The notes below the pieces were generated by a model that saw only the letters and a program-made list of their open reading frames with translations, searched no databases and was not told the DNA's origin. Shown here in pieces: positions 5,156 to 30,181 of a stretch of 34,412 nucleotides of DNA. Within the stretch, counting starts at the first letter, position 1; the number at the start of each line of letters is the position of its first letter. The position numbers and the translations under genes were made by a program. The DNA is from Clostridia bacterium (lineage in GTDB: Bacteria > Bacillota > Clostridia > Oscillospirales > Acutalibacteraceae). The DNA is taken from assembly GCA_017431035.1 (NCBI GenBank), contig JAFRLW010000016.1, positions 1 through 34,412 of the forward strand. Reading direction: 5' to 3'.

Positions 5156-5184
5156 ATTATAATGCAATATATACAAAATGTCAA
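5156..5184 (-). promoter_or_regulatory. Perfect consensus promoter without a recognised gene
   Basis: Minus strand: -35 TTGACA (5179-5184), 17-nt spacer, -10 TATAAT (5156-5161). Both hexamers are exact consensus, as strong as the 5S rRNA promoter in this window. Confidence 0.75.
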
Positions 5185-18307: not shown

Positions 18308-19095
18308 AAATAGGAATGTCATCATCTTGTCTTTATCCCGTTTACACCGAAGAGTCACTAAAAAAACTCGGTGAAAACGGTGTTAAAACCGCTGAAATCT
18401 TTTTTAACTCGTACGGAGAACTTGAAAGTGATTTTGTAAAGCAACTAAAGGCTATAAAAGAGCGCTATGATATGAATATCATATCGGTGCACCCCACCTT
18501 TTCTCTTGCCGAGTCTTTTGTCTATTTTTCTTCTTATAAAAGAAGATATGACGAGGGTATGGAACTTTATAAACGCTACGCCGAAATAGTTTGCGAACTC
18601 GGCGGAAAATATATCATAATGCACGGCGGAAAACCGAATAAGGTATTAACCGATACCGAGTATTTCGACCGCTTTGGCGAAATGAACAGGATAATAAAGA
18701 GTATGGGCGCCGTCATTTTGCAGGAAAACGTTGTGAAGTTTCGTGCAGGCAATCTCGACGTGCTTAAAAATATGTCGGAATATTTAGGGGATGACGCCAC
18801 TTTCTGCCTTGATATAAAACAAGCCATAAGAGGCGAGTATTCACCCTTTGACGTTTTGAAAGTCTTAAAAGGCAAGGTAAAACATTTGCACGTCAGCGAT
18901 AATCTTATGCCCGAAAAGGACTGTGTTCTGCCACTAAGCGGTAATTTCGATTTTGAAAAGTTTTTTAATACCGCAAAAGATGAGGGCTTTATAGGAGACG
19001 CTATTGTAGAGGTTTACTCAGACTGTTATAAGAAAGAGGACGAACTTTTTTCAGCCTATAAAAAGTTTAGAGAAAAATTTCAAAATAACTCTTGA
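18304..19095 (+). CDS. Sugar phosphate isomerase/epimerase-like TIM-barrel protein
   Basis: 263 aa of the xylose isomerase-like/AP endonuclease family 2 fold. Seen: the metal-ligand positions of the family, with E in LQENVVK, D in CLDIKQA, H in HLHVSDN and E in IVEVYSD, plus SVHPTF and IMHGG on earlier strands. Members act as sugar epimerases or isomerases; the substrate here is unknown. It overlaps rqcH by 4 nt, and its stop codon lies inside the -35 box of the 5S rRNA promoter, so the end of this operon abuts the rRNA unit directly. Confidence 0.85.
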   Translation: MKIGMSSSCLYPVYTEESLKKLGENGVKTAEIFFNSYGELESDFVKQLKAIKERYDMNIISVHPTFSLAESFVYFSSYKRRYDEGMELYKRYAEIVCELGGKYIIMHGGKPNKVLTDTEYFDRFGEMNRIIKSMGAVILQENVVKFRAGNLDVLKNMSEYLGDDATFCLDIKQAIRGEYSPFDVLKVLKGKVKHLHVSDNLMPEKDCVLPLSGNFDFEKFFNTAKDEGFIGDAIVEVYSDCYKKEDELFSAYKKFREKFQNNS

Positions 19096-19120
19096 CATTA
19101 GCATTTTGCTGTGCTATAAT
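19092..19120 (+). promoter_or_regulatory. 5S rRNA promoter (perfect consensus)
   Basis: -35 TTGACA (19092-19097), 17-nt spacer, -10 TATAAT (19115-19120); the -35 contains the stop codon of the upstream gene. Confidence 0.9.
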
Positions 19121-21260: not shown

Positions 21261-21293
21261 AAAAACCGACGCAATTTTTGTGTCGGTTTTTCT
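21261..21293 (+). terminator. Terminator after the helicase loader gene
   Basis: AAAACCGACGCA / loop / TGTGTCGGTTTT hairpin followed by more T residues. Confidence 0.85.
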
Positions 21294-21310: not shown

Positions 21311-21339
21311 TTGACAATATGCGTAAATATATATATAAT
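21311..21339 (+). promoter_or_regulatory. Promoter of the amino-sugar glycan operon
   Basis: -35 TTGACA (21311-21316), 17-nt spacer, -10 TATAAT (21334-21339); both hexamers are exact consensus. The next in-strand gene starts at 21382, and no further terminator is seen until after the rnf genes. Confidence 0.85.
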
Positions 21340-21381
21340 AATTTATTATATATCTATAAAAAGGTGTCAGGAGAATAGCGG

Positions 21382-22773
21382 ATGAATAAAAGCCTAAGGG
21401 AGAATGAACATTTTCTTATCAAAAGAAAAAAAAGACTCTCAAATTTTATCCCTTGCGAGCCATTGTCAAAGAACGAAAAATTCTTTTTGGCTTTTTGTTT
21501 TATTGTTTATTTTGGATGGTCAATTGTTTTTTTGAACAAAGGTTACGGACCTGACGAAACCATGCGATATGATGTACCGATGTATATTTATAAGCACCTT
21601 TCTTTGCCCTTTGGTAATGAGGCGGAAATAGTCAATTCTTATTGGGGAATGTCATACGGATATTCTATTATGTTTCCATACCTTTTAAGTGCGGCGTTTA
21701 TGAAAACGGTGTCCTTTTTTACACAAAGCCCAAATGTTTTATGGATAGCCGCAAGATTTACAAGTGTGATATCCGGAATAGGTGTTGTCTTTTATGCAAT
21801 GTGTATTGCTCGCTCGATTACTAACAAGTCTATAAGATGGGTGTTTATTATTCCCTTATCGCTTATGCCGCAAATGATTTTTATATTCAGCTATTGCAAT
21901 TTGGACTCGTTTGGTTTGTTTACGGCAGTATTTTTGCTGTATTTATGGATTTATGGCATGAAAAACAAATGGGATATAAAAAGTTGTTTTTGGCTTGGAA
22001 TAGGTATAGGGTTATGTTTTTTGTCATATCCATTTGCTTATCCTTTTATTTTTGGAAGTTTTCTTGTTTATTGTATATGGCATATATTGCATTTCAAAGA
22101 AACCTCTTTCAAAAAGTTTATAGGACACGGTGCAATTGTATTGCTGCTGGTCTTTGTTGTTTCCGGCTGGTACTTTATACGAAATGCATTTTTGTATAAC
22201 GGAGATATTTTTGCTTTGAACGCTTCAACCCCATATGCCGAAAAACTTGCCGCACCGGAAATGAAACCGTCGGTAAGAAGTATGCAGACAATGCGAGCAA
22301 CGGGCTACTCTATATTTGGAATGCTCAAAAACACACCGTGGATAAAAATGACATTTTATTCGATGTTCTACGGATTAGGATATATGACAATTTTCGCATC
22401 TGAAGCTCTATATGAAATCATATTCGTTATTATATGCATAGGAGCTGCAGGTTGTGTTCTTTCGCTGATAAAGGGTGAAAAAATATCGCAAGATACGGTC
22501 GTTTGTTCGGTTGTTTTGATAATAGTGTCAATTATAACGGTGCTTTTGTCATTGTATTACTCATGGTCGTCGGATTATCAGCCGCAAGGGCGATATATTA
22601 TAACTTGCTTACCGCTCATATATGCTATAGTGGCATACGGGATTTATAATATTACTAAGCTGTTACCTCAGCAAAAAAAAGTTCAGCGTTGTATTTGTAT
22701 AGTTGTTTTTTTAGCAGTTATGTTTGTAGATTTTAAGGCCACATACGATTGTCTTAAAAACTTTGTTTATTAA
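21382..22773 (+). CDS. GT-C-fold glycosyltransferase-like multi-pass membrane protein
   Basis: 463 aa with about ten to eleven hydrophobic segments. The first extracytoplasmic loop carries the acidic pair GYGPDET (D58, E59), the hallmark position of GT-C enzymes that take sugars from polyprenyl-phosphate donors (ArnT, PMT and related). The last third has QPQGRYIITCLPL, a motif also found in PMT-like and DUF2142 proteins. Family assignment is therefore approximate. It is first in an operon with a polyprenyl-phosphate glycosyltransferase and SMR half-transporters, the expected partners of a GT-C enzyme. The acceptor is unknown. SD CAGGAG. Confidence 0.7.
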   Translation: MNKSLRENEHFLIKRKKRLSNFIPCEPLSKNEKFFLAFCFIVYFGWSIVFLNKGYGPDETMRYDVPMYIYKHLSLPFGNEAEIVNSYWGMSYGYSIMFPYLLSAAFMKTVSFFTQSPNVLWIAARFTSVISGIGVVFYAMCIARSITNKSIRWVFIIPLSLMPQMIFIFSYCNLDSFGLFTAVFLLYLWIYGMKNKWDIKSCFWLGIGIGLCFLSYPFAYPFIFGSFLVYCIWHILHFKETSFKKFIGHGAIVLLLVFVVSGWYFIRNAFLYNGDIFALNASTPYAEKLAAPEMKPSVRSMQTMRATGYSIFGMLKNTPWIKMTFYSMFYGLGYMTIFASEALYEIIFVIICIGAAGCVLSLIKGEKISQDTVVCSVVLIIVSIITVLLSLYYSWSSDYQPQGRYIITCLPLIYAIVAYGIYNITKLLPQQKKVQRCICIVVFLAVMFVDFKATYDCLKNFVY

Positions 22774-22787
22774 ATGGGGGTACTAAT

Positions 22788-23915
22788 ATGATTTCTTTCA
22801 ATTGTCCGCCTTATGTCGGAAAAGAACTTGATTATATTAAACAGGCTGTAGAGGCGCATAAGATTTGCGGCGACGGTGAGTTTACAAAAAAGTGTAACGA
22901 GTGGATGGAAAAACGCTTTGGCGCACAAAAGGTACTTCTTACCACAAGCGGAACAACAGCTCTTGATATGGCGGCTCTGCTTTGCGATATAAAACCCGGC
23001 GATGAAGTTATTCTTCCGAGTTTTACCTTTTCAAGCACCGCTACGTCTTTCGTACTTGCGGGGGCAACGCTTGTCTTTGTTGATATAAGACCCGACACTA
23101 TGAATATTGATGAAAGAAAAATCGAAGCGGCTATCACCGATAAAACAAAGGTTATAGTTCCCGTTCATTATGCCGGCGTTGCCTGTGAAATGGATACTAT
23201 AATGGCTATCGCCAAAAAGCATAATCTCCTTGTTGTTGAGGATGCGGCTCAGGGTGTTATGAGTGAGTATAAGGGCAGAGCGCTCGGTACAATAGGCGAT
23301 TTTGGCTGCTATTCTTTCCACGAAACAAAGAATTACTCAATGGGTGAGGGCGGAGCCCTTGTGATAAACCACGAAAAGTATAACGAACGTGCCGAGATAC
23401 TTCGTGAGAAAGGCACTAACCGTTCAAAGTTCTTTCGTGGACAGGTTGATAAATACACGTGGGTTGATTTCGGCGACAGTTATTTGCCGAGCGAACTAAA
23501 CGCCGCTTATCTTTGGGCGCAACTAAACGAGGCGGATAAAATCAACCTTGACCGTATAGGCACGTGGAATAAGTATTATGAAGGTCTAAAACCTCTTGCC
23601 GACAAAGGACTTTTTGAAATACCTACAGTGCCGGAAGAGTGCAAACACAACGCCCATATGTTCTATATAAAATGCCGTGATTTAAGCGAGAGAACTGAAC
23701 TTATTTCTTTCCTTAAAGAACATAACGTCAACAGTGTGTTCCACTATATACCGCTTCATAGCGCACCGGCAGGCTTAAAATACGGTCGTTTTCACGGTGT
23801 GGATGAATATACCACCCAAGAAAGCGAAAAATTGGTTCGCCTGCCTATGTATTACGGATTGAATGAGGTGGATTGTGAACAAGTCATTAAATCTGTAATA
23901 GAATTTTTCAAGTAA
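22788..23915 (+). CDS. wecE: dTDP-4-amino-4,6-dideoxygalactose transaminase (WecE/RffA-like)
   Basis: 375 aa PLP-dependent DegT/DnrJ/EryC1 aminotransferase. It matches E. coli WecE closely throughout: ICGDGEFTKKC, PGDEVILPSFTFSSTA, RPDTMNIDERKIEAAITDKT, VPVHYAGVACEMDTIMA, and FHETKNYS with PLP lysine K181. WecE converts dTDP-4-keto-6-deoxyglucose to dTDP-4-amino-4,6-dideoxygalactose (TDP-Fuc4N) for enterobacterial common antigen. The dTDP-glucose synthesis genes rmlA and rmlB are not in the window. Base composition looks more like the housekeeping genes than its A+T-rich neighbours. Confidence 0.92.
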   Translation: MISFNCPPYVGKELDYIKQAVEAHKICGDGEFTKKCNEWMEKRFGAQKVLLTTSGTTALDMAALLCDIKPGDEVILPSFTFSSTATSFVLAGATLVFVDIRPDTMNIDERKIEAAITDKTKVIVPVHYAGVACEMDTIMAIAKKHNLLVVEDAAQGVMSEYKGRALGTIGDFGCYSFHETKNYSMGEGGALVINHEKYNERAEILREKGTNRSKFFRGQVDKYTWVDFGDSYLPSELNAAYLWAQLNEADKINLDRIGTWNKYYEGLKPLADKGLFEIPTVPEECKHNAHMFYIKCRDLSERTELISFLKEHNVNSVFHYIPLHSAPAGLKYGRFHGVDEYTTQESEKLVRLPMYYGLNEVDCEQVIKSVIEFFK

Positions 23916-23937
23916 AAAAATAATGTGAGGGTTTAGA

Positions 23938-24879
23938 ATGAAAATATCCGTTGTAGTTCCTGTATACGGTTGTCCAGGTGCGGTTTTACCTTTATGTGAA
24001 AGGGTGGCCGATACGGTTAAAAAAATTGCCGATGACTATGAAATAATACTCGTAAACGATGCGTGCCCAAAGCACTCTTGGGAACAGGTGGAAATTGCGT
24101 GCAAAACAGACAGACACATCGTAGGAGTGGAGTTAGCAAGAAATTTCGGACAAATTCATGCGATAACAGCCGGACTTGATATTTGTGACGGTGACTGGGT
24201 TGTAGTAATGGACTGTGATTTGCAGGATCGTCCAGAGGGAATTATTGAACTCTTCAACAAGGCGCAGGAAGGCTATGACGTCGTATTTGCCAAACGCAAG
24301 GAGCGCAAAGATACTGCCATCGTCAAGTTTTTTTCAAAAGCTTTTTATAAAGTATATGATTATTTCACTGACGGAAAATTCGATAATTCAATTTGTAATT
24401 TCAGTATTTCCAAAAAGGAAGTTATAGACTCCTATTGTAGCCTAAGGGAACAAAATCGTGCTTATACTTTGTTCTTAAAATGGCTGGGATATAGGCAAAC
24501 CGCTATTGAAATCGAATCAGATATGCGGTATGAAGGAAAATCCTCTTATAACTTCAAACGAAAAATCAATATGGCTACTCAGTTTATAACAGCACAGTCT
24601 AATAAACCGTTGTTGTTCTCTGTAAAATTCGGATTCCTTATGTCAATTTTGGCTTTTATTTTTGCCATAATAAAATTTGTACAGTTTTTTGTTACAGGAG
24701 AAGTGCCGTCTGGATGGACAAGTTTGTTTGTTTCTATTTATTTTTTAGGCGGGCTTGTATTGTTTGCAATTGGAGTGATTGGTGTATATATCGGTTATAT
24801 TTTTGATGAGGTAAAACATCGACCGATTTATGTAATAAGAACAGTTTTGAACAAAGAAATAAAAAAGGAGAATAAATAA
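23938..24879 (+). CDS. Polyprenyl-phosphate glycosyltransferase (GT2; GtrB/ArnC/DPM1-like)
   Basis: 313 aa. GT2 catalytic domain: VVPVYG, D41 in LVNDACP, LARNFGQIHAITAGLD, and the metal-binding DCDLQD (D92, D94). Two C-terminal membrane helices (about 225-250 and 263-290; FGFLMSILAFIFAIIKF and LGGLVLFAIGVIGVYIG) place it with enzymes that load a nucleotide sugar onto undecaprenyl phosphate on the inner face, such as GtrB, CsbB and ArnC. The sugar is probably the WecE product or a derivative (inference). Its stop overlaps the next start by one base. Confidence 0.92.
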   Translation: MKISVVVPVYGCPGAVLPLCERVADTVKKIADDYEIILVNDACPKHSWEQVEIACKTDRHIVGVELARNFGQIHAITAGLDICDGDWVVVMDCDLQDRPEGIIELFNKAQEGYDVVFAKRKERKDTAIVKFFSKAFYKVYDYFTDGKFDNSICNFSISKKEVIDSYCSLREQNRAYTLFLKWLGYRQTAIEIESDMRYEGKSSYNFKRKINMATQFITAQSNKPLLFSVKFGFLMSILAFIFAIIKFVQFFVTGEVPSGWTSLFVSIYFLGGLVLFAIGVIGVYIGYIFDEVKHRPIYVIRTVLNKEIKKENK

Positions 24880-25880
24880 TGATATTGGTTATAGGAGCAA
24901 CGGGCTATATAGGAAGATATTTTTGTACCGAAATGGTGGATAAGGGCGAAGATATTCTTGCTCTGGGTCGCTCAAGGCAAGTTGCTGATTTTTTTGCACA
25001 CAACAATGTTCCTTATCAATACTTTGATTTGAATGATGAGGCGTCTTTTGAAAAACTACCTAAGAACAATATTGAAGCGATAATAGATTTATCTGCTTGC
25101 CTTGCGGAGTTGGAAACACCGGTTGAACAATTTTTTAAAATAAACACAATTGGCGTTTATCGGGTTTTGGAATATGCAAAGCAAAATAATATAAAAAAGG
25201 TTGTTATAACATCTTCTCATAAGGTTTATAATGATGTTTATAAAGATGTAATATCCGAGAACGATTCGATCAGTTTTCGTGGAGACCATTCTCCCTACAT
25301 TATATCTAAAATTGCGGCTGAAAATTTTGTTGATTACTATAACAAGGATTTTGATATGCAAGCTGTAGCCTTAAGACTTACCGGCGTTCATGGGTATGGT
25401 GAGATATTGGGTCACTTAAATGCCGATGGCTCTTATAAAAAAAGCACTTTTGAGATTTTCTTTGAAAATGCATTGTGTGGTAAAACGATTGAGGTATGGG
25501 GTGATCCTTCAATTAAAAGAGATCATATATACGTGAAAGATGTAGTATCCGCCTTGTTGGCTGCTGTACGTAGTAAAAACGCAAAAGGTATTTATAACAT
25601 AGCATCTGGTGTGGGCTATTCACAATATGAAGAGGCACTGGTACTGGCTGATGTGTTTGGAAAAAAAGGCAATAAAAGCAAAGTTATACAAAGGCCTGAT
25701 CTTCCCGGGCTTACCAGAGGTTATATTTACGACATTAAAAAAGCTCAAAAGGATTTGAACTGGAATCCCGAATATAGCGACCTGACACGCCTTTATACAG
25801 ATTATAAAAAAGAATGGGAATCAAAACGTTATCACAATTATCATAAAATATTAGAAAGTCAGCAACCGGCAACTTTATAA
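24879..25880 (+). CDS. NAD-dependent epimerase/dehydratase (extended SDR)
   Basis: 333 aa. Seen: Rossmann motif GATGYIG at residues 6-12, and the catalytic SPYIISK (YxxxK) after VVITSSHKVY. Then RLTGVHGYGE, and the substrate-side IKRDHIYVKDVVSALLAAV typical of UDP/dTDP-sugar epimerases and 4-reductases. It could epimerise or reduce the deoxy-sugar nucleotide used in this operon; the exact reaction cannot be read. One-base overlap with the preceding glycosyltransferase gene. Confidence 0.9.
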   Translation: MILVIGATGYIGRYFCTEMVDKGEDILALGRSRQVADFFAHNNVPYQYFDLNDEASFEKLPKNNIEAIIDLSACLAELETPVEQFFKINTIGVYRVLEYAKQNNIKKVVITSSHKVYNDVYKDVISENDSISFRGDHSPYIISKIAAENFVDYYNKDFDMQAVALRLTGVHGYGEILGHLNADGSYKKSTFEIFFENALCGKTIEVWGDPSIKRDHIYVKDVVSALLAAVRSKNAKGIYNIASGVGYSQYEEALVLADVFGKKGNKSKVIQRPDLPGLTRGYIYDIKKAQKDLNWNPEYSDLTRLYTDYKKEWESKRYHNYHKILESQQPATL

Positions 25881-25893
25881 TGGGGATATAAGA

Positions 25894-26928
25894 ATGTTTG
25901 ATGGTAATGCTTTTTATGTAAGTCGTGCTGCAACCGGAATATATTTAATACTAAAAACAACAATTCAAAATCCAGAAAAAAAGACAGTTTTAATTCCGGC
26001 AAATATTTGCTATGCTGCAGTACTTCCTATTGTCTATTGCGGTCTTAAAGTGCGTTTTTGTGATGTTGATTCAGTAACAGGAAATGTTACTTATAAATCG
26101 TTTGTTGAAAAATGTAGCGATGATGTTGCCGCTGCAATTGTTCCGCATATGTACGGAAATCCGGTTGATGATTTGCACGACATATCGTTGTACTGTAGAA
26201 AAAAATGCATTTTACTTATAGAAGACTGTGCATCTGCTATGGGGTCAAAGAGCGAAAAATACAAACTTGGAAGTCAAGGCGATTTTACGGTTTATAGTAT
26301 GGGCTACTCAAAAACAGTTGATTTGGGATATGGCGGCATAATTGTAAGTGAGCTTGACTTGAAAGCGATTGAAAATGAGGAAAGAAGTCTTTCGCTTTAT
26401 AATGAAAATGCTAACGAACTTGCTTTTTTTTCAAAAATATATCGGGATTTAAGAAACGACAATAACAACACAAAGTTAAGACGCAAAATATATTCAGCGC
26501 TACCAGGGGTTGTCAAAGATGAATTGTTGTGTCGTATTAATGATAAACAAAAAGAATATTTGAAAAATGGTCTAAAATCACTCGAAAGTGTTATTCAAAA
26601 TCGCAGATATTCACAATCTTTGTATGAAAGCCAGTTGCCTGATTTGAAAGAGAATATTTATCATTTTAGCGATGGCTCTGTTCCGTGGCGTTTTTGTATG
26701 CTGTTAGACAAAAAAATAAAAAAACAGATAATAAGTGAATGCTTAAAAAACAACCTACCTATAAGTGATTGGTATCCTGTTGTTGCCCCGGTTTTTGGAG
26801 ATTATAGCGAATATCCTGGTGCAAAGGCACATGAGGAACATATACTAAATTTTCCATTACCGAATTCCGAAAAACAGATAAATGATATTTGCAGGATAAT
26901 AAATTCGACTGTTAACAAAAGGATATGA
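25894..26928 (+). CDS. Divergent DegT/DnrJ-family PLP aminotransferase-like enzyme
   Basis: 344 aa. It shares the DegT fold pattern: VLIPANICYAAVLPIVYCGLKVRFCDVD, IVPHMYGNP, LLIEDCASAMGS (D111 near PLP N1), and the Schiff-base lysine K140 in MGYSKTVDLGYGG. The usual SGTxAL phosphate-binding turn is replaced by SRAATGIY at residues 10-17 and the N-terminus is about 40 residues shorter than in WecE. This suggests an altered substrate or oligomer. A+T-rich codon use, unlike wecE upstream and the ATP-grasp gene downstream. Confidence 0.82.
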   Translation: MFDGNAFYVSRAATGIYLILKTTIQNPEKKTVLIPANICYAAVLPIVYCGLKVRFCDVDSVTGNVTYKSFVEKCSDDVAAAIVPHMYGNPVDDLHDISLYCRKKCILLIEDCASAMGSKSEKYKLGSQGDFTVYSMGYSKTVDLGYGGIIVSELDLKAIENEERSLSLYNENANELAFFSKIYRDLRNDNNNTKLRRKIYSALPGVVKDELLCRINDKQKEYLKNGLKSLESVIQNRRYSQSLYESQLPDLKENIYHFSDGSVPWRFCMLLDKKIKKQIISECLKNNLPISDWYPVVAPVFGDYSEYPGAKAHEEHILNFPLPNSEKQINDICRIINSTVNKRI

Positions 26929-26934
26929 ATATAA

Positions 26935-28092
26935 ATGAAAAAGATAGCGATTATAGGTGCTTCTTATTTACAAGAGCCGCTTATCAGTTTGGCAAAAAAT
27001 ATGGGTATTGAAACACACGTTTTTGCCTGGGCGGCAGGAGATGTCGGTGAAAAAATTGCCGACCGGTTTTATCCTATCAGTATTGTGGAAAAAGAGGAAA
27101 TACTATCCGTTTGCCAAAAGATAGGTGTTGACGGTATATGCAGTATTGCCTCCGATCTTGCTATGGTTACGGTAAACTACGTTGCCGAAAAGATGGGACT
27201 TGCCGGCAATAGTTTTAACGCCACCTTGAAAAGTACCAATAAACACCTTATGAGAGAGGCTTTTAAGGCGGCGGGGGATCCAAGCCCCGAAAGCGTAGAG
27301 GTAGATACCGATACAGATCTTTCCGCACTCGGATTTACCTACCCTGTAATAGTAAAGCCGACCGACCGCAGCGGCAGCAGGGGAATATGCAAGGTTTATG
27401 ATAAATCGCTTTTAGAAAAAGCCGTAAAAGTTGCTATAGAGCAAAGTTTTGAAAAAAAGGCGCTTATTGAAGAGTTTTGTGAGGGAAAAGAGTATAGCGT
27501 AGAGTTTATCTCTCAAAACGGGGAACATCAATTTTTGGCGATTACCGAAAAGTTCACCACCGGCGCACCTCATTTTATAGAAACGGGGCATATTGAACCG
27601 CCGGATCTTAATCCCGAAACAGAAAAAAAGGTTATAAAAATTGTAGAACACGCACTCACTACGCTCAGCATCAAAAACGGTGCGTCACATACAGAAGTAA
27701 AAATTGATAAAAACGGCGTTATCAAAATTATAGAAACAGGCGGCCGTATGGGCGGAGATTTTATAGGAAGCGACCTTGTAAAACTCCATACCGGATTTGA
27801 TTTTGTCAGGGCGGTTATAGATATAGCGCTCGGCATAAATTATAAAGAAGATAAAGAATGTTTTACAGATGATAAAAGCGCCGCAGCGGTCAGATTTATA
27901 TTTGGCGAAAATGATATAAAAGTTTATGAAAAACTTTTAAGAGAACATAAAGAGTATATAGTTTCAAAAGAGATAGGCACCCCCGATAAAGAGGTAACCG
28001 ACAGCGCTTCAAGATTTGGCTATTATCTGTTTAAGGCGGAAAAAAGGGAAGATCTGCTTTCCTACTTGCCGGAGAGTGAAAACAATGAATAA
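26935..28092 (+). CDS. ATP-grasp ligase
   Basis: 385 aa. Pre-ATP-grasp Rossmann-like domain (MKKIAIIGASYLQEPLI, about 1-95), then the ATP-grasp core: FTYPVIVKPTDRSGSRGICKV (nucleotide lysine and glycine loop), LIEEFCEGKEYSVEFI, and the metal-binding HTEVKIDKNGVIKIIETGGRMGGD. These enzymes join a carboxylate to an amine or thiol through an acyl phosphate; within this operon a plausible job is attaching an amino acid or other acid to the amino sugar (inference). Its 3' end overlaps the first SMR gene by 8 nt. Confidence 0.88.
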   Translation: MKKIAIIGASYLQEPLISLAKNMGIETHVFAWAAGDVGEKIADRFYPISIVEKEEILSVCQKIGVDGICSIASDLAMVTVNYVAEKMGLAGNSFNATLKSTNKHLMREAFKAAGDPSPESVEVDTDTDLSALGFTYPVIVKPTDRSGSRGICKVYDKSLLEKAVKVAIEQSFEKKALIEEFCEGKEYSVEFISQNGEHQFLAITEKFTTGAPHFIETGHIEPPDLNPETEKKVIKIVEHALTTLSIKNGASHTEVKIDKNGVIKIIETGGRMGGDFIGSDLVKLHTGFDFVRAVIDIALGINYKEDKECFTDDKSAAAVRFIFGENDIKVYEKLLREHKEYIVSKEIGTPDKEVTDSASRFGYYLFKAEKREDLLSYLPESENNE

Positions 28093-28480
28093 AGGCGAAA
28101 AGATAAAATACTTTTTTATACTTCATTTAATGCTTATGCTCTATTCTATGAGCGGTATCGCAAGTAAACTTGCCGCCGGGACAAAGTTTTTGAGTTTCAA
28201 GTTTTGTCTTTGTTACGGCGTGATAATACTGCTTCTCGGCATTTATGCAATAGGTTGGCAACAAATTATAAAACACCTGCCGCTTACCACCGCATTTTCA
28301 AATAAAGCGGTAACGATTATTTGGGGGCTTGTTTGGGGGGCTCTCCTTTTCCACGAAAAAATAACCGCAGGCAAAATAGCGGGCGTTATTCTGGTTGTTA
28401 TAGGCGTTGTCCTTTTTGCAAAAGCGGATAATGAAACCGAAAAAGAGCAGGAGAATATAAAGGCGGTGGATGAAAAATGA
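28085..28480 (+). CDS. SMR/EamA-type half-transporter, ArnE-like
   Basis: 131 aa with four hydrophobic segments, the size of small multidrug resistance proteins and of ArnE/ArnF. Seen: the final helix pair WGLVWGALLFHEKITAGKIAGVILVVIGVVLF carries the ExIxxxKxxGxxLIxxGV pattern of the EamA/SMR superfamily. The C-terminus is a charged tail. The start ATG is inside the end of the ATP-grasp gene with a GGAGAG SD; its stop overlaps the next SMR gene by 4 nt (ATGA). The pair probably forms a heterodimeric flippase for a lipid-linked sugar. Confidence 0.83.
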   Translation: MNKGEKIKYFFILHLMLMLYSMSGIASKLAAGTKFLSFKFCLCYGVIILLLGIYAIGWQQIIKHLPLTTAFSNKAVTIIWGLVWGALLFHEKITAGKIAGVILVVIGVVLFAKADNETEKEQENIKAVDEK

Positions 28481-28833
28481 TAAACCGCCAAATGATACTT
28501 TATTCCTGTCTTTTACTGCTTGGTGTTTTTATAAGCGCCGTTTCGCAGGTGATGCTAAAACGGGCGGCTATGAAAAAGTATCCCTCAAAAATAAAGGAAT
28601 ACTTAAATCCGCTTGTTATTTTTGCGTATGCGCTTTTTGTCGGCACGACCTTTTTATCTATTTTTGCCTATAAGGTTATACCCCTTTCTATAGGTCCTGT
28701 GCTTGAGTCAACAAGTTATATATATGTAACTTTCTTCGGCGCTACCATATTCAAAGAAAAAATAACGGCAAAAAAAATAATCGCTTTGATATTTATCATA
28801 TCCGGAATAGTCGTTTTTGCGCTTGCCGGATAA
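28477..28833 (+). CDS. SMR/EamA-type half-transporter, ArnF-like
   Basis: 118 aa with four hydrophobic segments. SAVSQVMLKRAA at the end of helix 1 resembles the ArnF/EmrE start, followed by VIPLSIGPVLESTSYIYVTFFG (helix 3) and FKEKITAKKIIALIFIISGIVVF (helix 4). Second half of the coupled pair. With the GT2 enzyme upstream, the best parallel is ArnE/ArnF, which flip undecaprenyl-phosphate-aminoarabinose; this role is inferred. rnfC starts 19 nt downstream with no terminator in between. Confidence 0.83.
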   Translation: MINRQMILYSCLLLLGVFISAVSQVMLKRAAMKKYPSKIKEYLNPLVIFAYALFVGTTFLSIFAYKVIPLSIGPVLESTSYIYVTFFGATIFKEKITAKKIIALIFIISGIVVFALAG

Positions 28834-28852
28834 AACGGGAGGAAAAGAGGAT

Positions 28853-30181
28853 ATGAAACTTATAAAAAAGGAACTAAAACCCTTAAAGAAACTTCGTGGC
28901 GGCATACATCTTGACCACCATAAAAACTCCGAAAATGCCGAAACGATAGTAATGCCCGCACCTGAAATGGTGTATATCCCCATGTCCCAGCATATCGGCG
29001 CTCACGCCTCTTCTTGTGTAAAGAAAGGGGATAAAGTTTACGTCGGCACCGTAATCGGCGAGGCGTCAGGCTTTGTCAGCGCTCCTGTTCACTCAAGCGT
29101 ATCGGGAGAGGTTGAGGATATTATCGTTAAGAATATCGGCGGCAGGGATACAGACGTTGCCGTTATCAAATCGGACGGAGAAATGACGATAGACCCCGAA
29201 CTTAAACCCTTTACAGTCAGAAAGGTTGCCGATTTGACAGAGGCGGCAAAGAGGTGCGGACTTGTAGGCCTCGGCGGTGCAGGTTTCCCCGCCGGAGTAA
29301 AACTCTCTTTGCCTGACGGTGTAAAAATAGATACTCTTGTTGTAAACGGTGCAGAGTGTGAGCCTTATATCACTTCAGACAACCGTGAACTTATAGAAAA
29401 CAGCAAAGACGTGGTTGAAGGCGTTTACCTTATTAAGAAAATTATGAAAATAGATAAGGCTGTTATCGGAATTGAAAGTAACAAGCCCGGCGCTATTGAA
29501 AATATAAATGAACTTGTTAAAAATCATAAAGAATACGACGGCTCTATCACGGTAATGCGTTTGCCGTCTACATATCCTCAAGGCGCCGAAAAGGCGATAA
29601 TCTATTCAGCGACAGGCAGAAAAATGCCGGGCGGTGCGCTGCCCAGTGCGGTAGGTTGTATAGTTATGAACGTTACAAGTATCGGCACACTTTACCGTTT
29701 TATAAAAACGGGCATGCCCCTTGTCAGAAAACGTATCACCATTGACGGAACTGCCGTAAGTGAGCCTAAAAACGTATCGGTTTGTATTGGAACACCCATT
29801 AAAGACGTTATAGATTTTGTCGGCGGTGTGGATGAAAATGCCGACCGTATAATAATGGGCGGACCTATGATGGGCGCCCCCGTTGCAAGTGAGGACGTTG
29901 TTGTTGAAAAAAGAAACAACGCCATACTCATTATGAAGGAAAGAGAAAAGCGCACCACAACCAACTGTATCCGTTGCGGAAGATGTGCGGCGGCGTGTCC
30001 TATGCACCTATATCCTCAGCAGGTTGAGTCGGCGTATAATGCAGGTCTTAAAGACCGCTTTAGTGAGATGAACGTTAATTATTGTATGGAATGCGGAAGT
30101 TGCGCCTATGTTTGTCCGGCAAAACGTCCGCTTACCGAGGTTATGCGTATAGCAAAACAAACGCTTAGGGGGAAGAAGTAA
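28853..30181 (+). CDS. rnfC: Rnf complex subunit RnfC
   Basis: 442 aa. Peripheral NADH- and Fe-S-binding subunit of the membrane ferredoxin:NAD+ oxidoreductase. Seen: GGIHLDHHKN near the N-terminus, the glycine-rich LVGLGGAGFPAGVKL and VVNGAECEPYITSDNR (NADH/FMN fold), and two 4Fe-4S motifs CIRCGRCAAACP and CMECGSCAYVCP. Start ATG behind GGGAGG; an in-frame reading 12 codons upstream starts before the SD. It shares its last base with the rnfD start. Confidence 0.96.
   Translation: MKLIKKELKPLKKLRGGIHLDHHKNSENAETIVMPAPEMVYIPMSQHIGAHASSCVKKGDKVYVGTVIGEASGFVSAPVHSSVSGEVEDIIVKNIGGRDTDVAVIKSDGEMTIDPELKPFTVRKVADLTEAAKRCGLVGLGGAGFPAGVKLSLPDGVKIDTLVVNGAECEPYITSDNRELIENSKDVVEGVYLIKKIMKIDKAVIGIESNKPGAIENINELVKNHKEYDGSITVMRLPSTYPQGAEKAIIYSATGRKMPGGALPSAVGCIVMNVTSIGTLYRFIKTGMPLVRKRITIDGTAVSEPKNVSVCIGTPIKDVIDFVGGVDENADRIIMGGPMMGAPVASEDVVVEKRNNAILIMKEREKRTTTNCIRCGRCAAACPMHLYPQQVESAYNAGLKDRFSEMNVNYCMECGSCAYVCPAKRPLTEVMRIAKQTLRGKK

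What the first reader, a model, noticed from the sequence alone, without database searches (positions are those of the whole stretch)
21311..28833. Arn-like amino-sugar lipid-carrier operon in a Clostridia genome
Eight adjacent genes behind one perfect promoter encode the roles of the Gram-negative Arn system: sugar aminotransferase (ArnB-type, here WecE-like), polyprenyl-phosphate glycosyltransferase (ArnC-type), GT-C membrane enzyme (ArnT-type) and a coupled pair of SMR half-transporters (ArnE/ArnF-type). An NAD epimerase, a second divergent DegT enzyme and an ATP-grasp ligase are added. Lipid A, the Arn target, is not expected in this group, so another surface polymer would be the acceptor. 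The ATP-grasp ligase suggests acylation or aminoacylation of the amino sugar. The individual families are known; the combination and its target are, as far as I can tell, not described.
Basis: partly seen in the sequence, partly recalled or inferred. Interest (0 to 1): 0.8.

Follow-up and report, generated by a model that had tools for sequence, protein, structure and literature searches.

The report
Clostridial aminosugar-to-surface glycosylation operon
Eight bacterial genes appear to build a modified amino sugar, load it on a lipid carrier, flip it across the membrane and attach it to the cell surface; the logic is known from other bacteria, but we found no description of this combination of parts.

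Summary
The eight genes are real, contiguous and inherited as a unit: the same eight in the same order occur in one genus of another family, and the five-gene set WecE, GT2, ATP-grasp, SMR1, SMR2 recurs in 11 further loci, one of them Bacteroidales. The Arn analogy holds for logic, not membership: the aminotransferase is WecE (a dTDP-Fuc4N maker), ArnA and ArnD are missing from the operon, and LpxC was not found. Best reading: a three-component extracytoplasmic glycosylation system. RmlA/RmlB (encoded elsewhere) and WecE make dTDP-Fuc4N; the ATP-grasp ligase amidates its amino group; GT2 loads it on a polyprenyl phosphate; SMR1/SMR2 flip it; the GT-C-type protein transfers it to an unknown acceptor. 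Main support: in sister cassettes a GNAT N-acetyltransferase takes the ATP-grasp position, and 15 of 15 sampled genomes with this ATP-grasp (48% identity or more, a limit set after viewing) have WecE, against 17 of 394 in the order. C. difficile type B flagellin offers a partial precedent. Weak points: nothing assayed; GT-C fold rests on distant profile matches; the SMR pair matches EamA rather than the SMR model; epimerase and second DegT unexplained.

The parts
21261..21291 (+). terminator-like hairpin that closes the upstream gene
   Evidence: 14-pair stem plus T-rich tail; a consensus match only
21311..21339 (+). sigma-70-type promoter, perfect TTGACA-17-TATAAT
   Evidence: 12 of 12; one of 3 perfect sites in the window, 0.02 expected
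21382..22773 (+). GT-C-type membrane protein (463 aa), presumed glycosyltransferase
   Evidence: homologues in seven fetched loci (29-50% identity in alignment A2) with invariant PDExxR and QPQGRY; 5 of 8 members match PMT_2 at E up to 0.1, best 2.9e-8; the window protein itself is not shown to match
22788..23915 (+). WecE, dTDP-4-amino-4,6-dideoxygalactose transaminase
   Evidence: TIGR02379 647 bits, cut-off 435; solved dTDP-4-amino-4,6-dideoxygalactose transaminases 4piw 8e-173 and 6blg 4e-169
23938..24879 (+). GT2 polyprenyl-phosphate glycosyltransferase (GtrB/ArnC/PgfS type)
   Evidence: sll0501 (GtrB) 7e-55, ArnC 1e-39; PgfS 216 bits of 500, ArnC 170 of 529, both under cut-off
24879..25880 (+). 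NAD-dependent epimerase/dehydratase-family enzyme, accessory
   Evidence: PF01370 2e-44; relatives near the ATP-grasp in L018, L021, L044, L045, L050
25894..26928 (+). second, N-terminally short DegT-type PLP enzyme, accessory
   Evidence: PF01041 1e-25, aligned from profile position 42; Lys aligned with the Lys of 7b0m; directly before the ATP-grasp in the window, L044, L045, L019 and L026/L129, the loci where it was the best match
26935..28092 (+). ATP-grasp carboxylate-amine ligase, proposed N-acyl (amino acid) ligase for Fuc4N
   Evidence: PF13535 3e-24; model pLDDT 90.4; best folds 4dim, L-amino acid ligase 3vot, BacD, followed by many other ATP-grasp enzymes
28085..28480 (+). SMR-like half-transporter 1
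   Evidence: EamA 24 bits (cut-off 28.2), ArnE 24 bits (cut-off 92) (scanned from 28082); Lys/Arg bias +5, no acidic residue in predicted TM1
28477..28833 (+). SMR-like half-transporter 2
   Evidence: EamA 30 bits (cut-off 28.2), ArnE 28 bits (cut-off 92); Lys/Arg bias -7, no acidic residue in predicted TM1

Best explanation
A three-component extracytoplasmic glycosylation operon, probably acquired horizontally, for an N-acylated 4-amino-4,6-dideoxygalactose (Fuc4N). RmlA and RmlB, encoded elsewhere in the genome, make dTDP-4-keto-6-deoxyglucose; WecE aminates it to dTDP-Fuc4N; the ATP-grasp ligase forms an amide on the 4-amino group, most likely with an amino acid; GT2 moves the sugar to undecaprenyl phosphate; SMR1/SMR2, an antiparallel heterodimer, flip it; the GT-C-type protein transfers it to a surface polymer or protein, not lipid A and not flagellin in this genome. 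Shown by sequence: gene families, operon conservation, linkage, presence of rml genes, no LpxC or flagellin match. Inferred: order of steps, nature of the acyl group, flipping, transfer, acceptor; the roles of the epimerase and second DegT are open.
For: Same eight genes in the same order in G003 and G065, one genus of another family (protein identity 50-79%). Six-gene core without epimerase and second DegT: G008 GT2-ATPg-SMR1-SMR2-WecE-GTC, G762 and G647 WecE-ATPg-GT2-SMR1-SMR2-GTC. RmlA-RmlB-WecE-ATPg contiguous in L046, RmlA and RmlB over cut-off. L099 and L100 read WecE-GNAT-GT2-SMR1-SMR2, the L100 GNAT PseH-like (83.7 bits, cut-off 93.1): the GNAT stands exactly where G762 and G647 have the ATP-grasp. 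ATP-grasp at 48% identity or more goes with WecE in 15 of 15 genomes; WecE in 17 of 394 genomes of the order; overlap in the order 7 of 7, hypergeometric P 7e-11, identity limit chosen after viewing and kinship not corrected. SMR pairs: 13 of 13 examined have opposite charge bias, no Glu in predicted TM1 of 26 proteins. RmlA and RmlB over cut-off in the own genome. Partial precedent: a PF13535 ATP-grasp mutant of C. difficile type B lacks the peptidylamido Fuc3N cap (PMC5207246, PMC5207245; abstract and passages).
Against: No enzyme was assayed. The window's GT-C protein has no direct family hit, its model is unusable (pLDDT 46.6) and its family profile finds nothing in the PDB. The SMR pair matches EamA, not an SMR model, in Pfam. 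Over all 16 ATP-grasp genomes of the order only 7 have WecE; the nine with 35-45% identity have none, one of them (G344, L050) with epimerase and GT2 beside the ATP-grasp. Two of 17 WecE loci show neither an ATP-grasp nor a GNAT (L101, L105) and 5 only a remote ATP-grasp (27-30%). In 2 of 8 further class genomes the ATP-grasp lies away from WecE. In the C. difficile case the authors name a FemAB-like protein (0244) as the candidate for acylating Fuc3N and leave the ATP-grasp's role open; mutants of GT3 and 0246 show the same loss. Epimerase and second DegT are unexplained.
Confidence: 0.62

Rival explanations
1. The ATP-grasp does not touch Fuc4N itself but ligates an amino acid or acid elsewhere (for example onto the product of the second DegT/epimerase branch), so two activated groups are made and the lipid-linked sugar carries free or otherwise acylated Fuc4N.
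For: The second DegT directly precedes the ATP-grasp in the window, L044, L045, L019 and L026/L129, and L019 and L026 have no WecE in view; GT2 and epimerase lie beside the ATP-grasp in L018 and L050 without WecE in view, and the genome of L050 (G344, 94% complete, ATP-grasp 45%) has no WecE match.
Against: L046 (RmlA-RmlB-WecE-ATPg) and L048 (WecE-ATPg) lack the second DegT and the epimerase in view; G626, whose locus reads DegT2-ATPg-GT2, also encodes WecE on another contig.
Confidence: 0.2
2. A Pgf-like system: GT2 plus epimerase serve a common UDP-sugar and the GT-C-type protein glycosylates secreted proteins; WecE and ATP-grasp add a second sugar.
For: GT2 scores best with PgfS among NCBIfam models (216 of 500 bits); pgf combines a GT2, membrane proteins and an epimerase and modifies surface proteins (PMC5856776, passages).
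Against: PgfS score far below cut-off; pgf, as seen in the passages, is a four-gene set without SMR pair, WecE or ATP-grasp; the epimerase was not found in the five-gene-set loci L009, L010, L024, L049, L128, L132, L133, L134.
Confidence: 0.1
3. The SMR-like pair is an unrelated drug or metabolite exporter and the other genes form an ordinary nucleotide-sugar cluster.
For: In Pfam the pair matches EamA (SMR1 below its cut-off, and PUNUT weakly); weak MdtJ and EbrA matches stand beside those to ArnE and ArnF.
Against: SMR1-type genes lie in 11 of 17 WecE loci of the order and in 4 of 8 further class loci; no Glu in predicted TM1, the residue that binds protons in proton-coupled SMRs (PMC9574504, passages).
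Confidence: 0.05

Closest known systems
Arn pathway (ArnB, ArnC, ArnT, ArnE/ArnF), aminoarabinose on lipid A
   Same: aminotransferase, Und-P GT2, SMR-type flippase pair, GT-C transferase; amino group blocked before transfer to the lipid (in Arn by formylation, recalled)
   Different: WecE not ArnB; no ArnA or ArnD gene in the operon; ATP-grasp instead of formyltransferase; hexose not pentose; no LpxC match in the genome
Three-component glycosylation systems (GtrA-GtrB-Gtr; CsbB-GtcA-YfhO)
   Same: GtrB-type GT2, small-membrane-protein flippase, GT-C transferase; acts outside the membrane (PMC11127046 and PMC7389260, passages)
   Different: SMR-like pair in place of GtrA/GtcA; dedicated dTDP-amino-sugar synthesis plus ligase. 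Relative L114, with a homologous GT-C-type protein, does use GtrA beside an FdtA-containing amino-sugar set
C. difficile type B flagellin peptidylamido-glycan locus
   Same: PF13535 ATP-grasp near a dTDP-amino-sugar transaminase; product is an amidated dideoxy-amino-galactose
   Different: 3-amino (FdtB-like) not 4-amino; also needs GT3, a cyclodeaminase-like protein and perhaps a FemAB-like protein; no SMR pair or GT-C mentioned in the passages read; no flagellin match in the own genome
Enterobacterial common antigen Fuc4NAc branch (RmlA, RmlB, WecE, WecD)
   Same: same dTDP-Fuc4N route through WecE (recalled)
   Different: sugar is N-acetylated and built into a Und-PP repeat unit (recalled); here Und-P carrier and ATP-grasp (inferred)
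Streptococcus mutans pgf operon
   Same: PgfS-like GT2, epimerase, multi-TM membrane proteins (PMC5856776, passages)
   Different: no amino-sugar synthesis, ligase or SMR pair in the passages read

Membership tests
Arn system | ArnB aminotransferase for UDP-Ara4N | tested here: not met
   ArnB model 192 bits, cut-off 631; WecE model 647, cut-off 435
Arn system | ArnA (decarboxylase/formyltransferase) and ArnD (deformylase) in the operon | tested here: not met
   no such match over cut-off among the eight genes; the epimerase gives 20 of 294 bits to a UDP-4-keto-pentose synthase model. Rest of the genome not searched for them
Arn system | lipid A as acceptor | tested here: not met
   no LpxC (PF03331) match in G000 or G003, 0 of 2; the control rings in E. 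coli
SMR family | match to the SMR model of Pfam (PF00893, the one used in PMC9574504) | tested here: not met
   Pfam scan to 0.001 lists EamA (and PUNUT for SMR1) only
Arn system | SMR-type pair as lipid flippase (ArnE/ArnF) | tested here: inconclusive
   ArnE and ArnF matches at 20-28 bits, under cut-offs 92-99; opposite charge bias, no TM1 Glu; transport not tested
Three-component extracytoplasmic glycosylation | GtrB/ArnC-type polyprenyl-phosphate GT2 | tested here: met
   closest solved relatives sll0501 (GtrB) and ArnC
Three-component extracytoplasmic glycosylation | GT-C transferase | tested here: inconclusive
   PMT_2 in 5 of 8 family members at E up to 0.1, best 2.9e-8; window member none; model unusable; no PDB hit
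Three-component extracytoplasmic glycosylation | small-membrane-protein flippase | tested here: inconclusive
   pair linked to GT2 and WecE; flipping not tested
WecE family | over the curated cut-off of TIGR02379 | tested here: met
   647 bits, cut-off 435
L-amino acid ligase-type ATP-grasp | ATP-grasp fold and sequence similarity to BL00235/BacD | tested here: met
   3vot 6e-30, BacD 1e-18; 3vot TM 0.83 of the query. BacD model of NCBIfam 79.5 bits, cut-off 850, so not an equivalog
L-amino acid ligase-type ATP-grasp | ligation of an amino acid carboxylate to an amine | not testable with these tools
   His219 and Arg271, aligned with BacD His276 and Arg328 (counted by hand, chain index minus 2; roles recalled), are invariant in 20 sequences

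The most novel reading that the evidence does not exclude
A new class of lipid-linked donor: undecaprenyl-phosphate carrying an aminoacylated or peptidylated Fuc4N, made by a WecE/ATP-grasp pair and flipped by an SMR-like heterodimer, used by Clostridia and some Bacteroidales to put charged aminoacyl-sugar groups on surface polymers, a counterpart of both Arn and D-alanylation.
Probability: 0.35. Interest if true: 0.75.

Novelty: new variant of a known kind. Interest (0 to 1): 0.52.

Why it matters
The SMR review says lipid-type SMRs (defined there by PF00893) occur mainly in Proteobacteria and were all singletons in its genome set (PMC9574504, passages). This cassette puts a paired, ArnE/ArnF-like transporter into a genome without an LpxC match, tied to a defined sugar route, so flipping by such heterodimers and aminoacylation of lipid-linked sugars become directly testable. 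It also suggests a function for a subfamily of PF13535 ATP-grasp enzymes and for a GT-C-type family of which two members (window, L114) match no Pfam model at 0.001.

Tried and rejected
Literal Arn membership: rejected. Drug-exporter reading of the SMR-like pair: judged unlikely. Flagellin as acceptor: no PF00669 match in G000 (95% complete); of 10 genomes searched G008 and G504 have flagellin. Phage or plasmid carriage: the ATP-grasp gave no phage match at 1e-30 and 12 plasmid records, all under 60% identity, the 8 listed at most 41.6%. Empty-site comparison with three congeners gave nothing: no window gene upstream of rnfC was matched syntenically beside their rnfC. Search for a glycan cluster near rml genes: contig 18 (rmlB) and 12 kb of contig 15 (rmlA) were read by ORF length and first residues only; no acceptor found. 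GT-C structure from a single sequence: unusable. PDB profile search with the GT-C alignment: nothing. A 264-aa ORF over SMR1-SMR2 in L044 first looked like a fusion; DNA alignment with L045 shows a wrong-frame artefact. My ORF picker missed genes in some loci (L049, L107, L108), so counts use tblastn. For one search I used 13 pairs and left out those of L021, L024, L044, L099, L102 and L128. Literature: the terms were searched; judged by the listed titles and abstract starts only, none is about this operon; long lists were cut and subscription papers are mostly outside the library. After checking, the main confidence was lowered from 0.66 to 0.62 because two facts had been left out (no PF00893 match; the C. 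difficile authors' FemAB candidate).
Full report
WHAT IS THERE. Eight genes on the + strand, 21382-28833, follow a hairpin terminator (21261-21291) and a perfect sigma-70 promoter (21311-21339). Three perfect promoters occur in the window against 0.02 expected. Gene order: GT-C-type protein, WecE, GT2, NAD epimerase-family protein, second DegT, ATP-grasp, SMR1, SMR2. Neighbours overlap by up to 8 bp or are at most 22 bp apart. SMR2 ends 19 bp before rnfC (ATG 28853), with no + strand terminator listed between them.

FAMILIES. WecE is over its curated cut-off (647 bits, cut-off 435) and matches the solved transaminases 4piw and 6blg. GT2 matches sll0501 (GtrB) and ArnC. The ATP-grasp matches PF13535 and the L-amino acid ligases BL00235 and BacD; its model (pLDDT 90.4) finds 4dim, 3vot and BacD first, then many other ATP-grasp enzymes, so the fold supports the superfamily more than the substrate. 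The second DegT starts at position 42 of PF01041, with its Lys aligned to that of 7b0m. The window GT-C-type protein has no Pfam or NCBIfam match at 0.001; a 50% identical homologue matches PMT_2 at 1.2e-5 (26 bits, cut-off 26.1), and 5 of 8 family members match it at E up to 0.1 (best 2.9e-8), with PDExxR and QPQGRY invariant. The two small proteins match EamA, not the Pfam SMR model, and ArnE/ArnF models below cut-off; I call them SMR-like.

CONSERVATION. Of 394 genomes of the same order, 16 including the own have the ATP-grasp at E 1e-40 or better and 5 the GT-C-type protein at 1e-5 (own, G003, G065, G008, G172). G003 and G065 (one genus of another family, so one lineage) carry all eight genes in order at 50-79% identity, whereas their RnfC is only 39-40% identical. 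Three of three congeners lack the ATP-grasp, WecE and the GT-C gene at the limits used. This points to horizontal acquisition. G008 has GT2-ATPg-SMR1-SMR2-WecE-GTC. Of 391 genomes of the class, 9 including the own have the ATP-grasp at 1e-85; of the other eight, WecE is in the fetched locus in 6, the five-gene set WecE+GT2+ATPg+SMR1+SMR2 in 4, and in two of these (G762, G647) a GT-C homologue follows; the remaining two, G626 and G728, encode WecE elsewhere. Of 20 named-genome loci, 10 have WecE at 50% or more, 6 both SMR genes, and 4 the five-gene set (L009, L010, L021 and the Bacteroidales L024); several of these contigs are short. In all, the five-gene set was seen in 11 loci besides the window (L009, L010, L021, L024, L044, L045, L049, L128, L132, L133, L134), with a GT-C homologue in 5 of the 11. 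L026 and L129 share contig length and layout and are probably one genome.

LINKAGE OF LIGASE AND SUGAR. Genomes with the ATP-grasp at 48% identity or more number 15 in the two samples, own included, and 15 of 15 have WecE (in 13 in the same locus). For ten of these the TIGR02379 cut-off was checked; for the other five WecE rests on 62-73% tblastn identity. The nine order genomes with weaker relatives (35-45%) have none, so over all 16 ATP-grasp genomes of the order the overlap is 7. The 48% limit was chosen after viewing. WecE occurs in 17 of 394 genomes of the order; 7 of 7 gives hypergeometric P 7e-11, uncorrected for kinship. The 17 WecE loci carry: this ATP-grasp 7, a GNAT 3 (L099, L100, L103), only a remote ATP-grasp (27-30%) 5, neither 2; SMR1-type genes 11 (L107 and L108 without a detected SMR2); GT2 12. 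L046 reads RmlA-RmlB-WecE-ATPg, and L100 WecE-GNAT-GT2-SMR1-SMR2-RmlA-RmlB. The exchange of a sugar N-acetyltransferase for the ATP-grasp at the same position is the main reason to call the latter an N-acylating ligase. L114 has a homologous GT-C-type protein with a DegT transaminase, a GNAT, FdtA, a GT2 and a GtrA protein, suggesting that the module swaps sugars and flippases.

SMR-LIKE PAIR. In 13 pairs examined (six others left out), SMR1 has a Lys/Arg bias of +1 to +8 and SMR2 of -3 to -9, as expected for an antiparallel heterodimer; no Glu lies in the predicted TM1 of any of 26 proteins, and three SMR1 rows have one Asp there (in L105 at the segment's first residue; L132 and L134 not inspected). 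Lipid SMRs often have Asn for the central Glu (PMC9574504, passages).

PRECEDENT AND ITS LIMITS. In C. difficile type B flagellin modification a PF13535 ATP-grasp gene lies near an FdtB-like transaminase; its mutant lacks the cap, Fuc3N amidated with a taurine-alanine-glycine unit (PMC5207246, abstract and passages; PMC5207245, outline with abstract and passages). But mutants of GT3 and 0246 lose it too, the authors name a FemAB-like protein as candidate for acylating Fuc3N, and they leave the ATP-grasp's exact role open. Three-component systems in Gram-positive bacteria use CsbB, GtcA and YfhO (PMC7389260, passages); PMC11127046 (passages) describes related pentofuranose systems and cites an SMR-family exporter in mycobacteria.

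SOURCE AND ACCEPTOR. RmlA and RmlB over cut-off are in the own genome on other contigs. LpxC was not found in G000 or G003, nor flagellin in the own genome. Two LCP-family genes are present, compatible with a wall polysaccharide acceptor but not evidence for it.

VERDICT. A coherent, recurrent glycosylation module, Arn-like in logic, not an Arn member; a new variant of the three-component kind. Gene content and conservation are firm; chemistry, flipping, transfer and acceptor are inference.

Noticed in passing
28833-28853: rnfC follows SMR2 by 19 bp without a listed terminator, so the Rnf operon may share the promoter of the glycosylation operon.
   Followed up: partly
L063 and L064 (rnfC of G065 and G003): The rnfC homologues there contain one in-frame TGA in the matched stretch; possibly a selenocysteine or a recoded codon.
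   Followed up: no
L114 6103-11680: GT-C-type homologue with a DegT transaminase, GNAT, FdtA, GT2 and GtrA: an apparent 3-amino-sugar sister system using a different flippase.
   Followed up: partly
L051-L058: More distant ATP-grasp relatives (33-44%) sit near a different DegT transaminase, in 4 of 8 with hexapeptide acyltransferases, suggesting further amino-sugar amidation systems.
   Followed up: no
L023 356-4633: The ATP-grasp gene in this Bacteroidales locus is followed by genes that look (recalled, no family search) like a MaoC-type hydratase and a CoA-ester lyase before WecE, so the acyl donor there may be a hydroxy acid.
   Followed up: no
L115 13516-16824: Own genome, contig 18: a DegT transaminase next to a 653-aa protein with a partial match to the RmlB model, just before rmlB; a possible second amino-sugar route.
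   Followed up: no
window 5156-5184 (-), 19092-19120 (+): Two further perfect sigma-70 promoters.
   Followed up: no
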